Assembly: GCA_904419285.1 (NCBI GenBank) | Contig: CAJFQZ010000016.1 | Coordinates: 1-64,000, forward strand | Source of the DNA: Lachnospiraceae bacterium UBA1818 | GTDB taxonomy: Bacteria > Bacillota > Clostridia > Lachnospirales > Lachnospiraceae | Direction of reading: 5' to 3' | DNA length: 64,000 bases | Part shown: positions 27,328-57,342 of the stretch, one piece after another | Layout: each line of letters opens with the position of its first letter | Position numbering within the stretch: the stretch's first letter is position 1 | The notes under the pieces: model-generated | The model's input: the letters and a program-made list of their open reading frames with translations, nothing else | Told to the model about the DNA's origin: nothing | The model's database searches: none | Made by a program: the position numbers and the translations under genes

Positions 27328-27347
27328 GTTACTGTATGAACAGTAAC
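27328..27347 (+). terminator. Hairpin directly after ackA
   Basis: GTTACTGT and ACAGTAAC form an 8-bp stem with an ATGA loop, starting one base after the ackA stop. The lack of a U-run makes termination efficiency doubtful. Confidence 0.4.
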
Positions 27348-36766: not shown

Positions 36767-37948
36767 TCAGAAGGTCTCTCCGTTCTTATATTTTTCAAGC
36801 AGAGCGTGAATCTTGTCGGTCGGGTTCAGGACCTTGCCGATCGTGATGTCGTGATTCAGAGAATCAATGATCAGTGCAAGGAACTTGCTCATGTCAGCCT
36901 GTACAAAGTATGGCTTCTCATAGAGTTCCGGCGGCAGGTAGGTCAGGTTGGTGGTGACGACCTTGTTGATATATCCCTTTTCGAAATAATCGTCGAACTT
37001 GTCGAAGCCGTCCGTGAACAGCCCGAAGGTGGTGCACACGAAGACTCTGCCGGCATTGCGGTCCTTCAGCTGCTTGGCAACCTCCAGCATGCTTCCTCCG
37101 GAGGAGATCATATCGTCCACGATAATCACATCCTTGCCGCGTACATCGTCTCCGAGGAATTCATGTGCGACGACCGGATTCTTTCCGCCGACGATCGTTG
37201 AATAGTCGCGGCGCTTGTAGAACATTCCCATATCTACTCCAAGTACGTTGGAGAAGTATACGGCGCGGTGCATGGCTCCTTCGTCAGGGCTGACGATCAT
37301 CAGGTGTTCTTTGTCCGGGATGATGTCCGGAACAGCGCGGAACAGCGCCTTCATAAACTGGTACGGCGGATTAAAGCTGTCGAATCCGCTCAGCGGGATC
37401 GCATTCTGAACGCGCGGATCATGGGCGTCAAAGGTGATGATATTCGACACGCCCATTGCGTGCAGCTCTTCCAGCGCAAGGGCACAGTCCAGAGATTCTC
37501 TCTTCGTGCGTTTGTGCTGACGGCTCTCATAGAGGAAAGGCATGATCACATTGATCCTGTGCGCTTTTCCTGTCGCTGCAGAGATGATCCTCTTCAGATC
37601 CTGGTAATGGTCATCCGGCGACATGTGGTTCAGGTGGCCGTTCACCGTGTAGGTGAGGCTGTAGTTGCACACATCGGTCATGATGAAAAGGTCTGTGCCG
37701 CGGATCGTCTCTTTCAGAACGCCCTTTGCCTCGCCTGAGCCGAAACGGGGACAGCTGCAGTCCACGAGATAATTATTCGACTGATAATTGACATACAGAG
37801 GGGATTCTTTTACTTCGTTGATGGTGTTCTCCCGGAAGGAAACGAGATAATCGTTCACTTTCTGCCCCATGCTGCGGCAGCTTTCCATAGCCGCCAGCTT
37901 CAGAGGAGCTACCGGAAGAGTTCTTTCTAACAATTCGATATTTGACAT
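36767..37948 (-). CDS. prs: Ribose-phosphate pyrophosphokinase, long divergent form
   Basis: 393 residues, about 75 longer than classical Prs. It makes PRPP, the precursor of nucleotides, histidine and tryptophan. Family marks: GTDLFIMTDVCNYS, PFLYESRQHKRTKRESLDCALALEEL, ITFDAHDPRVQNAIP, IVSPDEGAMHRA and the PRPP-binding DVIIVDDMISSGGSM (usually DMIDTAGT). The sequence thus belongs to a clade distinct from B. subtilis Prs. Minus-strand AGGAG lies about six bases before the ATG at 37946-37948. Transcribed alone. Confidence 0.9.
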   Translation of the reverse strand: MSNIELLERTLPVAPLKLAAMESCRSMGQKVNDYLVSFRENTINEVKESPLYVNYQSNNYLVDCSCPRFGSGEAKGVLKETIRGTDLFIMTDVCNYSLTYTVNGHLNHMSPDDHYQDLKRIISAATGKAHRINVIMPFLYESRQHKRTKRESLDCALALEELHAMGVSNIITFDAHDPRVQNAIPLSGFDSFNPPYQFMKALFRAVPDIIPDKEHLMIVSPDEGAMHRAVYFSNVLGVDMGMFYKRRDYSTIVGGKNPVVAHEFLGDDVRGKDVIIVDDMISSGGSMLEVAKQLKDRNAGRVFVCTTFGLFTDGFDKFDDYFEKGYINKVVTTNLTYLPPELYEKPYFVQADMSKFLALIIDSLNHDITIGKVLNPTDKIHALLEKYKNGETF

Positions 37949-38007: not shown

Positions 38008-38036
38008 GTTATATCATTTTTTATTTATAAATTCAA
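38008..38036 (-). promoter_or_regulatory. Promoter of prs
   Basis: Minus strand TTGAAT (38031-38036), 17 bases, TATAAC (38008-38013); start near 38001, leader about 50 bases. Confidence 0.7.
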
Positions 38037-38044
38037 GCATAGCT

Positions 38045-38072
38045 TTGCGCGGAACGGGAATTGTGATATACT
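38045..38072 (+). promoter_or_regulatory. Promoter reading into the 38-kb structured leader
   Basis: TTGCGC (38045-38050), 16 bases, extended -10 TGATATACT (TATACT at 38067-38072). Transcription would start near 38079, a few bases before the first arm of the structured element. Confidence 0.65.
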
Positions 38073-38084
38073 ATTGACGTGTTA

Positions 38085-38271
38085 CAGTTCACACCGTACT
38101 CATGGATAGGAAACTGCAGCGTCATGCCTGCATGTAAGAGGCAGTTTCCTATCCATGAGTGCGAGTGGAACTCGCAGCCGCCGCCCAAATAAGCAGCCTT
38201 AGCACGAAGTGCGAAACTGGAGCGCGGCAGCGCGACAAGTGCGCATGCGGGCGGCGGTTAGGTGTGAACAG
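38085..38271 (+). repeat. Multi-hairpin element closed by a 9-bp terminal stem (candidate structured RNA or non-autonomous mobile element)
   Basis: The outer stem is GTTCACACC (38087-38095) with GGTGTGAAC (38261-38269). Inside, in order, are four stems. A perfect 20-bp stem (38098-38117 with 38141-38160) has a 23-base loop. GCGAGT/ACTCGC (38161-38175) has a GGA loop. A perfect 9-bp stem CCGCCGCCC (38178-38186) with GGGCGGCGG (38249-38257) encloses GCAC-GAA-GTGC (38202-38212) and GCGC/GCGC (38222-38233). Nearly every base is in or near a stem, and no ORF is present. The extended promoter just upstream would transcribe it as the 5' part of the DUF512 mRNA. A possible relic of the 3' portion lies at 62701-62745. 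Confidence 0.7.
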
Positions 38272-38284
38272 AAATATGGATATG

Positions 38285-38400
38285 GTTCACTCACAGGCGT
38301 GGAAATGCCCTGCAGATGTGCTTTCGGGACAGCGCGGGAGTGAACTTCAGTATGTTATGGCGTGCCTTCAGCGCGCTGAAGGACCAGAGTAGGAGTTCAC
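38285..38400 (+). promoter_or_regulatory. Second half of the DUF512 leader: alternative pairings reaching the ribosome-binding site
   Basis: GTTCACTC (38285-38292) can pair with GAGTGAAC (38338-38345). The overlapping GTGAACT (38340-38346) can instead pair with AGTTCAC (38394-38400), which is joined to the AGGAG ribosome-binding site (38391-38395). Between them is an 18-bp perfect palindrome (38365-38382). These mutually exclusive pairings resemble a translational switch; no ligand class is recognised. Confidence 0.5.
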
Positions 38401-38407
38401 AGGATAG

Positions 38408-39754
38408 ATGAAAAAGCATGAACATATCGTGAAAAATGTAGAAGCGGGCAGCATTGCCGAAGAGCTCGGGATCGAACCGGGAGACAGGCTCCTGGCGATC
38501 GACGGCCAGGAGATCGAGGACATCTTTGACTACCAGTTCTATGAGGAGAGCGAGGAGCTTCTCCTTCTTATAGAGAAAGCTGACGGGGAACAGTGGGAGC
38601 TGGAGATCGAGAAAGATGCGGACGAATCTCTCGGGATCAGTTTCGGAGAGGGACTGATGGATGAATACCGTTCCTGCCGCAACCGGTGCATCTTCTGTTT
38701 TATCGATCAGATGCCGCCGGGGATGAGGGATACGCTCTATTTTAAAGACGATGATTCCCGCCTCTCGTTTCTTCAGGGAAACTATATTACACTGACCAAT
38801 ATGAGCGATCATGACGTGGAGAGGATCGTCAGATACCGGCTCGAGCCGATCAATATTTCTTTCCATACGACGAATCCGGAGCTGAGGTGCCGGATGCTGC
38901 ACAACCGCTTCGCCGGTGACGCGCTGAAGAAAGTGGATATTCTGTATCAGGGCGGGATCGAGATGAACGGCCAGATCGTCCTCTGCAGAGGAGTGAACGA
39001 CGGGGAGGAGCTGGAACGCACCATCCGCGATCTGACAAAGTATCTTCCGCTTCTGAAGAGCGTCTCGGTCGTTCCTGTGGGACTGACCAGGTTCCGGGAG
39101 GGACTGTACCCTCTGGAACCGTTTACAAGAGAAGAAGCGAGGGAAGTACTCCGTGTGATCCACCGCTGGCAGAAGAAGATCTATGAAGAGTACGGGATCC
39201 ATTTTATACATGCGGGCGACGAGTGGTATCTCCTGGCAGAGGAAGAAGTCCCTGAGGAAGAGCGGTACGACGGATATCTCCAGCTGGAGAACGGCGTGGG
39301 AATGCTCCGCCTTCTGTTCAATGAATTTGAGGAGGGAATGGAACGGCTCGGGGACGGCGACAGATCCGGTGAGATCTCTGCTGCGACTGGGAAACTGGCA
39401 TATCCCTATATCCGCCGTATGGCGGATCGGATCCAGGAGCGTTACCCCGGAGTGAAGGTACATGTGTACTGTATCAGAAATGATTTCTTCGGGGAGAGGA
39501 TCACCGTGTCAGGACTGATCACCGGACAGGATATCATCGCCCAGCTCAAGGGGAAAGAGCTGGGCAGCAGGCTGCTCCTGCCGTGCAATATGCTCAAGGC
39601 GGACGAGGATGTCTTTCTTGACGATATTACCGTGAAAGAAGTATCTGACGCTTTACAAGTTCCGGTCGATATTGTAAAATCAAGCGGGCAGGATCTGATA
39701 GATGCCATATTAGGTCCGGAGACAGAAGAAATGGAGAATAATAAAGGAAGGTAA
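38408..39754 (+). CDS. PDZ and radical-SAM DUF512 protein
   Basis: 448 residues. The N-terminal PDZ-like domain (1-60, [25 protein letters not shown]) is followed by a radical-SAM CxxxCxxC motif CRNRCIFC (Cys90, 94, 97), then DUF512 (about 215-440) with [30 protein letters not shown], and the GxTG-like [10 protein letters not shown] and [16 protein letters not shown]. The reaction is unknown. The gene is nearly always next to der in Clostridia, here seven bases upstream, hinting at a ribosome- or translation-linked role. Expression would pass through the unusual leader at 38079-38407. Confidence 0.88.
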
Positions 39755-44385: not shown

Positions 44386-44474
44386 TATATCAGGTGGGGA
44401 GATGACTCCCGCCTCTATAGGCGGTGAGCAACAAAGCAGTATCAGTGGCGGGTGTCAATCCCCCACCTGATATA
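44386..44474 (+). ncRNA. Riboswitch-like structured leader of punA, unassigned
   Basis: A 14-bp perfect closing stem (44386-44399 with 44461-44474) encloses 61 bases. Two inner folds compete. One is TGACTCCCGCC with GGCGGGTGTCA (one T-T mismatch). The other is a local hairpin CTCCCGCCT/AGGCGGTGAG with one bulge. It lies between the punA promoter and a 17-bp hairpin. By eye it does not match the purine, THF, ZTP, SAM or SAH riboswitch cores. It is followed by purine/SAH salvage genes, so a purine-related ligand is the natural guess. Confidence 0.55.
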
Positions 44475-48472: not shown

Positions 48473-48877
48473 ATGTGTCAAGTAAGACAGACAATCGCGG
48501 CTGCATGCGCCGAAAGGCAGCAGACGAGGAAAGTCCGGGCTTCACAGGGCAGGATGCCGGATAACGTCCGGTGGAGGTGACTCCAAGGCCAGTGCAACAG
48601 AAATAAACCGCCCGGGCAGATGTATGCAGAGATCCGAAGAGAAGATCTCTGCATACATCTGCCCGGGTAAGGGTGGAAAGGCAGTGTAAGAGACTACCGC
48701 CTCGCTGGTAACAGCGAGGGCACATGTAAACCCCATCCGAAGCAAGACCGGAAAGAAGCTGTGTGGCGGCCCGTCACGCTTCAGGTTGGTCGCTTGAGCA
48801 CGGCGGCGACGCCGTGCCTAGATAGATGATTGTCCAACGACATAACCCGGCTTATCGTCTTGCTTGACACTCTTTTT
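48473..48877 (+). ncRNA. rnpB: RNase P RNA, class A
   Basis: Conserved blocks appear in order: GAGGAAAGTCCGGGCT (about 48527), GGCCAGTGCAACAGAAA (about 48588), GGGTAAGGGTGGAAAGGC then AGAGACTACCGC, GGCACATGTAAACCCCATCC, and AGATAGATGATTGTC near the 3' end. P1 is formed by GTGTCAAG-AAGAC (48475-48488) with 48857-48870 (one G-U) and runs straight into TCTTTTTA, so the first helix also acts as the terminator. P12 is a perfect 24-bp helix (48611-48634 with 48644-48667, 9-base loop), unusually long and regular. The RNA is the catalytic subunit that trims tRNA 5' ends. Confidence 0.96.
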
Positions 48878-57041: not shown

Positions 57042-57188
57042 CGTGCAATCATTATACTACGTGCGCAGGAAAGGAAGCGCCGCGCATGCGGCATTTACTT
57101 TCCAAGCCGTAGCTTCCGGTATAATCCCCGCGCAGCGGGGCGAAGCGGAGAAGCCGCTTCGGATTGCACGAACGTGCAATCATTATAC
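57042..57188. repeat. Small multi-hairpin element between two copies of the rqcH -10 region
   Basis: CGTGCAATCATTATAC occurs at 57042-57057 and 57173-57188 (131 bases apart); the inverse GATTGCACG is at 57162-57170, so the insert has inverted ends. Inside are GGAAAG/CTTTCC (57068-57073, 57098-57103) around GCCGC/GCGGC, CCCCGC/GCGGGG (57126-57140) and CGAAGCGG/CCGCTTCG (57141-57161). Both direct-repeat copies include a minus-strand TATAAT usable for rqcH. It is non-coding, and the layout is MITE-like. The rest of the 57009-57342 gap holds the ribosome-binding region of the surface protein gene and no other clear signal. Confidence 0.6.
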
Positions 57189-57342
57189 CACGGTTTATCC
57201 CCCGAAAAAAGTCCTCATTACGGTTTCGATTTTTAATTCCGCTATAGTTTTGCATAGTAACTGCTGTCAGGGGCTCGGAGCGGCAAGATAAGCAAGGACC
57301 GGTCTGAGTCCCGTATTATTTTTTAAACAGGGAGAAACAGAG

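What the first reader, a model, noticed from the sequence alone, without database searches (positions are those of the whole stretch)
38079..38407. 330-base structured leader with five alternating GTTCAC/GTGAAC segments before the DUF512 radical-SAM gene
The sequence shows a promoter ending near 38072, a multi-branched fold closed by GTTCACACC/GGTGTGAAC, then GTTCACTC, GAGTGAACT and AGTTCAC, the last fused to the AGGAG ribosome-binding site. The middle segment can pair with either neighbour, so ribosome-binding-site access could be switched. A perfect 20-bp hairpin and an 18-bp palindrome lie inside. I know of no Rfam class with this layout. It could be a new regulatory RNA or a non-autonomous mobile element that was captured as a leader.
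Basis: partly seen in the sequence, partly recalled or inferred. Interest (0 to 1): 0.75.

Follow-up and report, generated by a model that had tools for sequence, protein, structure and literature searches.

The report
Promoter-seeking mini-transposon inside a gene leader
The odd folded leader is mostly a small mobile DNA element that landed at the start of a gene's transcript, and its relatives tend to land at one fixed distance upstream of bacterial promoters.

Summary
The sequence features are real, but the leader is composite. Bases 38081-38275 are one decayed copy of a dispersed 195-bp miniature inverted-repeat transposable element (MITE): 28 places in this genome (my merge of 38 matches), termini GTTACWGTTCACACC, 8-bp target duplications. 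Full IS66-family elements with the same termini exist in the genus and are the likely transposase source. A close relative shows the empty site. Only 38284-38407 is older leader. The five GTTCAC/GTGAAC segments are the two element ends, an older hairpin and the ribosome-binding-site region. The proposed switch is not supported: its partner segment is not conserved, and predicted site access differs little with or without the element.

Unexpectedly, this family sits at a fixed place. In 38 of 96 flank-distinct insertions a -10 hexamer pointing away starts 54-60 bp from the duplication centre (40 hexamers; 9.2 expected from nearby positions), peaking at 57-58. This held in two further sets, one from records not titled as this genus. 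The window copy lies at 63, just outside that range. Rfam RF01699 (Clostridiales-1 RNA) also looks like a MITE, with other termini and a 6-bp duplication in 7 of 17 copies.

The parts
38008..38036 (-). promoter of the divergent gene prs (TTGAAT, 17 nt, TATAAC); measuring point for the insertion distance
   Evidence: read from sequence; motif recurs in relatives; not listed by the consensus scan; the gene 36767-37948 has ribose-phosphate pyrophosphokinase domains
38044..38072 (+). promoter of the DUF512 gene (TTTGCG, 17 nt, TATACT)
   Evidence: recurs in relatives with and without the element; not listed by the consensus scan
38073..38080 (+). left copy of the 8-bp target duplication (ATTGACGT)
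   Evidence: the empty site in G006 has one copy of 8 bp at this place
38081..38275 (+). 195-bp MITE, one decayed copy of a dispersed family
38081..38095 (+). left terminal inverted repeat GTTACAGTTCACACC
   Evidence: the same 15 nt with T at position 6 start IS66-type elements
38099..38159 (+). long hairpin of the element, stem varies with compensatory changes
   Evidence: 13 of 16 pairs with a change on both sides over 16 copies
38161..38175 (+). small hairpin GCGAGT/ACTCGC
   Evidence: 3 of 6 pairs with a change on both sides
38178..38257 (+). conserved second module with GCAC-GAA-GTGC and GCGC hairpins
38261..38275 (+). right terminal inverted repeat, decayed (GGTGTGAACAGAAAT)
38276..38283 (+). 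right copy of the target duplication, 5 of 8 matching (ATGGATAT)
38284..38346 (+). older leader hairpin GGTTCACTC ... GAGTGAAC, present in G006 with compensatory changes
38391..38395 (+). ribosome-binding site AGGAG; the overlapping AGTTCAC (38394-38400) is also in G006, which lacks the element
38408..39754 (+). DUF512 radical SAM / PDZ protein, 448 aa
   Evidence: PF04459 277 bits, PF19238 223.8 bits; TIGR03279 432.8 bits, below its cut-off of 574.7

Best explanation
Bases 38081-38275 are a non-autonomous IS66-type mini-transposon (MITE) that inserted, with an 8-bp target duplication, at about the transcription start of the DUF512 gene, between that promoter and the divergent prs promoter. 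It is now carried as the first ~195 nt of the DUF512 leader, in front of an older 124-nt leader. Shown: repeats, ends, duplications in the family, empty site, full-length IS66-type elements with the same ends, covarying hairpin. Also shown as a pattern over the family: insertions pile up with the duplication centre 57-58 bp upstream of a -10 hexamer, about -69 from the expected start site. Inferred: the element is transcribed; the transposase acts in trans; the transposition complex is guided by promoter-bound RNA polymerase or by promoter DNA shape; the leader has no switch function.
For: Copies: 38 BLAST matches in the own genome, 12 of 41 searched genomes match; exact 13-nt TIR in 32 of 58 genus genomes. 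Ends and duplications: 61 elements of 16-300 bp, non-redundant by 40-bp flank, with TSD at least 7/8, 37 of them 8/8. Autonomous form: 558-aa PF03050 protein (90.5 bits, cut-off 23.1) in a 2358-bp element with the same 15-nt start and TSD GCCGGAAT 8/8. Empty site: G006 reads TATACTAAAGACGT|GGTCCGCTCACAGG. Promoter distance: discovery 23 strict hexamers at 54-60 vs 5.6 expected from near positions; second set, same genus, 5 vs 1.2 and 5 full promoters vs 0.2; third set, other record titles, 13 vs 3.5 and 12 full promoters vs 1.2; pooled 40 vs 9.2, P 5e-14, with better -35 boxes than background, P 1e-7. The IS66-type element L291 has an 11/12 promoter at 57. At prs/DUF512, element remnants in G007 and G041 lie at 58 and 57 from the prs -10.
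Against: The window copy lies at 63, outside the 54-60 range, and its duplication matches only 5 of 8. 58 of 96 insertions show no strict -10 at 54-60. Promoters are predicted, none mapped. The range was chosen after seeing the first set. In the third set the 60-65 bin is raised too, 9 hexamers. Hexamers pointing towards the element number 21 at 54-60, without a sharp peak. The own genome has no PF03050 match at E 0.001, so the copies are orphans here or the assembly lacks the source. Of 4 autonomous elements examined only L291 shows the distance; L303, L290 and L292 do not, though the left flanks of L303 and L291 (21 and 24 nt) were too short to test. The transposase scores 162 bits against a 180-bit NCBIfam IS66 cut-off.
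Confidence: 0.86

Rival explanations
1. A cis-acting regulatory RNA of the DUF512 gene, in which GTGAAC segments pair alternately with neighbours and gate the ribosome-binding site.
For: Strong fold, in whose minimum-energy form the element's right end pairs with GTTCACA next to the ribosome-binding site; compensatory changes in the element; older leader hairpin kept in G006; RBS positions slightly less open with the element, for example 0.19 against 0.30.
Against: The full element is in none of the other DUF512 leaders printed; copies lie scattered elsewhere; the older-leader partner of AGTTCAC is lost in G006; RBS access is otherwise similar with and without the element; the fold is nearly as strong on the other strand.
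Confidence: 0.05
2. The promoter distance comes from selection after random insertion: insertions nearer than the -35/UP region are purged, those upstream survive.
For: Insertion points avoid genes: 27 of 71 inside an ORF of 100 aa or more against 212 of 274 control points. The raised 60-65 bin of the third set fits a softer edge.
Against: Selection predicts a plateau beyond the promoter, but pooled counts are 10 and 13 at 57 and 58 and 0-3 per position from 61 to 66; the same peak is seen in records of other taxa.
Confidence: 0.15
3. A member of Rfam RF01699 (Clostridiales-1 RNA), an sRNA of unknown function.
For: Sub-threshold full-length match, 22.8 bits; both groups share a hairpin-cap motif (15/16 and 13/13) and partly a GNNC-GNA-GNNC motif (13/16 and 6/13) (motifs defined by me after seeing both groups).
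Against: Below gathering score 48; unrelated miRNA models score as well, so a long hairpin alone can explain it. RF01699 copies have other termini and a 6-bp duplication.
Confidence: 0.1

Closest known systems
IS66 family insertion sequences (PF03050 / NF033517)
   Same: transposase domain of this family, 8-bp target duplication, inverted ends
   Different: no accessory gene recognised (89-aa ORF without Pfam match), NCBIfam score under cut-off, insertions anchored to promoters; that IS66 ends usually start GTAA is recalled, here mostly GTTAC
Bacterial MITEs with strong secondary structure (Correia, ERIC, RUP, BOX; recalled, not searched)
   Same: short, palindromic, mostly intergenic, can become part of transcripts
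   Different: termini, duplication length and the fixed promoter distance
Clostridiales-1 RNA, Rfam RF01699
   Same: similar size and hairpin plan, shared hairpin-cap motif, same genus, also found in the DUF512 leader of G043 (L159, 151.1 and 142.6 bits)
   Different: termini TGATGYYRGGGTCAAAAG, 6-bp duplication, no promoter at 54-60 in the 18 flanks of the 9 elements checked
Transposons tethered to promoters through RNA polymerase (yeast Ty1/Ty3 with Pol III; recalled)
   Same: works like them in the sense of a fixed distance from a start site
   Different: bacterial sigma-70-type promoters, DDE insertion sequence, no protein contact shown

Membership tests
IS66-derived MITE | termini shared with an autonomous element of the family | tested here: met
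   15-nt identity of the family termini (T at position 6) with 2358-bp PF03050 elements L291, L303
IS66-derived MITE | 8-bp target duplication | tested here: met
   61 elements at 7-8 of 8, 37 at 8/8; window copy 5 of 8
IS66-derived MITE | multiple copies without transposase gene | tested here: met
   28 places in G000 merged from 38 matches; no PF03050 match in G000
IS66-derived MITE | moved in trans by that transposase | not testable with these tools
   needs a transposition assay
IS66 family (autonomous element L291) | IS66 transposase domain | tested here: met
   PF03050 90.5 bits, cut-off 23.1
IS66 family (autonomous element L291) | NCBIfam IS66 equivalog cut-off | tested here: not met
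   162 bits, cut-off 180; so L291 is called IS66-type, not a certified IS66 member
IS66 family (autonomous element L291) | accessory tnpA/tnpB genes (recalled as typical, not universal) | tested here: inconclusive
   one 89-aa upstream ORF with no Pfam match
Rfam RF01699 Clostridiales-1 | gathering score 48 bits | tested here: not met
   22.8 bits
cis-regulatory leader RNA of DUF512 | conserved upstream of orthologues | tested here: not met
   leaders of relatives differ
cis-regulatory leader RNA of DUF512 | structure change alters RBS access | tested here: inconclusive
   predicted access slightly lower with the element, otherwise similar; one pairing of the element's end with the RBS-side GTTCACA in the minimum-energy fold; no wet test

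The most novel reading that the evidence does not exclude
A widespread group of IS66-type elements and their MITEs in Clostridia and neighbours chooses targets by reading promoter-bound RNA polymerase (or the DNA wrap at its upstream edge), inserting about 69 bp upstream of start sites. This would be a bacterial counterpart of promoter-tethered eukaryotic retrotransposons, and it seeds structured DNA between divergent promoters.
Probability: 0.45. Interest if true: 0.82.

Novelty: new variant of a known kind. Interest (0 to 1): 0.62.

Why it matters
The leader itself turns out ordinary, but it leads to a testable rule for where a bacterial transposon lands: a fixed distance upstream of promoters, reproduced in records of other taxa. 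If it is RNA-polymerase guided, it links transposition to transcription in bacteria and explains why some intergenic regions collect such elements. It also suggests that Rfam's Clostridiales-1 RNA is a mobile DNA element, which would change how its covariation should be read.

Tried and rejected
Rejected: insertion just downstream of -10 boxes as a general rule (first idea from DUF512 leaders); no such peak in 61 elements.

Rejected: an older degenerate copy at about 38278-38352 as source of the second GTTCAC pair. The apparent match used bases of the newer duplication, and the 329-base query gave no own-genome match to that part apart from itself.

Undecided: whether the folds matter as DNA or RNA. 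G-U versus A-C at paired columns is 23 versus 22 in the window's group (one pair with a G-U majority left out), 31 versus 7 in the G008 group and 22 versus 11 in 13 RF01699-type copies. These are cell counts, not events; the last two lean towards RNA.

Undecided: a common core of the window's group and RF01699; motifs shared but absent from the 26 G008 copies that have the window's termini.

Control: RF01699 elements show no promoter at 54-60 (9 elements, two of them the same place in two genomes, 18 flanks).

Led nowhere: a search for IS66 ends by duplication recovered only L291 and L292 of 30 loci; both were already known.

Literature: searches listed nothing that by title or start of abstract treats this family, or target choice by IS66 at a promoter distance. 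Only open-licence papers are held, no preprints. PMC2864571 was seen as three passages (Clostridiales-1 appears there as a table row). The other papers were seen only as search listings with starts of abstracts.

Full report
What was checked. The fold is much better than shuffles on both strands, z -6.8 and -6.0, which hints at inverted-repeat DNA rather than a strand-specific RNA. In the + strand minimum-energy fold the element's ends do not pair with each other; the right end pairs with GTTCACA beside the ribosome-binding site. Rfam at curated thresholds has nothing here; with a relaxed threshold RF01699 matches end to end at 22.8 bits against a gathering score of 48, alongside chance-like miRNA hits.

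The repeat. Bases 38081-38275 recur in the own genome: 38 BLAST matches, which I merge into 28 places, and 12 of 41 searched genomes match, all in the same genus. Sixteen near full-length copies align over 196 columns at 88% mean column identity. The termini are GTTACWGTTCACACC and its complement. The sixth base changes together at both ends in 6 of 16 copies. The window's left end is intact and its right end is decayed.

Mobility. A search of 247 loci for paired ends gave 61 elements of 16-300 bp, non-redundant by 40-bp flank, with an 8-bp flanking duplication of at least 7/8, 37 of them 8/8. Lengths cluster near 18, 31, 82-109, 142-145 and 195 bp. The 142-145-bp group of genome G008 has the same termini but a different interior. 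No element of 260-5000 bp with matching ends and duplication was found in those loci. A PF03050 search (20 of 58 genus genomes match) then led to IS66-type elements with these termini. L291 is 2358 bp with duplication GCCGGAAT on both sides and a 558-aa protein scoring 90.5 bits on PF03050 but 162 bits against an NCBIfam cut-off of 180. L303 (2358 bp) and L290 (2253 bp) are similar without a clear duplication, and L292 is a more distant 1820-bp relative with duplication CGAAAAAA. The own genome has no PF03050 match.

The empty site. In G006, whose DUF512 protein is 90% identical, the leader reads TATACTAAAGACGT|GGTCCGCTCACAGG, while the window reads TATACTATTGACGT|element|ATGGATAT|GGTTCACTCACAGG. 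This fits one insertion with an 8-bp duplication that has since drifted to 5 of 8. Eight bases lie between the TATACT hexamer and the element, so the element forms the start of the DUF512 transcript (inferred, no RNA data).

The switch. The AGTTCAC next to the ribosome-binding site is also in G006, which lacks the element, while its proposed partner GAGTGAAC is GAGCGGGC there, so that pairing is not kept. The older hairpin GGTTCACTC/GAGTGAAC is kept in G006 as GGTCCGCTC/GAGCGGGC; I saw it in those two genomes only. Unpaired probabilities over 38390-38397 are slightly lower with the element than without (for example 0.19 against 0.30, and 0.90 against 0.89), too little to argue for a switch. 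The other leaders printed differ from these.

Covariation. On the 16 copies, 20 of 59 pairs have a change on both sides, against 9.4 in shuffles, and 94.5% of cells pair against 26-45% for slid controls; the long hairpin contributes 13. G-U and A-C at paired columns are 23 and 22 in this group, leaving out one pair with a G-U majority, but 31 and 7 in the G008 group and 22 and 11 in RF01699-type copies, so DNA- or RNA-level selection is not settled. Inverted-repeat correction during replication is a further possibility.

The promoter distance. The DUF512 leaders suggested a link with promoters. In the 61 elements, TATAAT-like hexamers (TAnnnT, at most one mismatch) reading away from the element peaked 54-60 bp from the duplication centre: 23 against 5.6 expected from nearby positions and 3.9 from far ones. 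The range was chosen after seeing this set. With it fixed, 10 further elements from the genus gave 5 against 1.2, and 5 full promoters (-35 and -10, score 9 or more) against 0.2. Thirty-two elements from the GTDB scan (80 of 119 stretches listed; records titled as other Clostridia, Christensenellaceae, Coriobacteriales and unnamed Lachnospiraceae, none as Mediterraneibacter, though an unnamed one could belong to it) gave 13 against 3.5, and 12 full promoters against 1.2; there the 60-65 bin is raised too, with 9. One of these, L408, is a 2358-bp element with the same duplication word and promoter distance as L291, perhaps an orthologous place; L291 was not in the pooled set. Pooled and reduced to 96 flank clusters, 38 have such a hexamer: 40 hexamers against 9.2, P 5e-14, with counts of 10 and 13 at 57 and 58; 20 of the 38 also have a -35 of at least 4/6, and -35 boxes at the peak are better than background, P 1e-7. 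Hexamers pointing towards the element numbered 21 in the same range, without a sharp peak. Left and right sides are equal, 20 and 18. The duplication centre then lies near -69 from the expected start site.

The window copy against this rule. Measured from the divergent prs promoter (TTGAAT, 17 nt, TATAAC) the window copy is at 63. Remnants in G007 and G041 are at 58 and 57, and one in G061 at 58 by the same spacing (distances taken by me from its offsets). Whether G007, G061 and G041 are separate insertions or one old one is not settled. G043 instead carries RF01699 in its DUF512 leader, two matches in locus L159. So the region is a repeated landing site, but the window copy is off the peak by about 5 bp.

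RF01699. For 17 RF01699-type copies, extending the match by 27-35 bases gave the best duplication in 8, with termini of the form TGATGYYRGGGTCAAAAG at both ends in those; 7 of 17 have a perfect 6-bp duplication, allowing a small search over end positions. Of 9 such elements, none has a promoter at 54-60. The 2010 paper lists Clostridiales-1 in its table of motifs (PMC2864571, three passages seen). Two searches of the held library for the family's name listed no paper that by title or abstract treats it as mobile.

Verdict. The leader is ordinary as a MITE insertion. What is new is the promoter-anchored choice of target in this IS66-type group. The pattern is well supported; its mechanism is inferred.

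Noticed in passing
window 27328-27347: A 20-bp minimal copy GTTACTGTATGAACAGTAAC between two ORFs, apparently flanked by GAAATAAA with one extra base.
   Followed up: partly
window 57042-57192: 20-bp direct repeats CGTGCAATCATTATACNACG bracketing ~110 bp of palindromic sequence; by eye it resembles an insert in the DUF512 leader of G072 (L150).
   Followed up: no
window 44386-44474: 31-nt inverted-repeat element TATATCAGGTGGGG...CCCCCACCTGATATA after the spoIVA gene; a second copy at 79% identity on contig C6.
   Followed up: partly
window 48611-48667, inside RNase P RNA: A perfect 24-bp hairpin within the RNase P class A match of 48479-48870.
   Followed up: no
L043, L052, L181, L186, L193: Elements of only 18-31 bp, little more than the two fused ends, with 8-bp duplications intact; possibly excision or hairpin-deletion remnants.
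   Followed up: no
L088, L092, L093, L099, L159: RF01699-type elements here lie within about 10 nt downstream of TATAAT-like hexamers, or in AT-rich targets that mimic them.
   Followed up: partly
L159 1780-1947 and 2138-2305 (G043): Two RF01699 matches (151.1 and 142.6 bits) about 190 bases apart upstream of DUF512.
   Followed up: no
L187 2773-2914 (G008): An element with the window's kind of termini but RF01699-like hairpin caps ATGC-TT-GCAT and GCGTAGC, a possible bridge between the groups.
   Followed up: no
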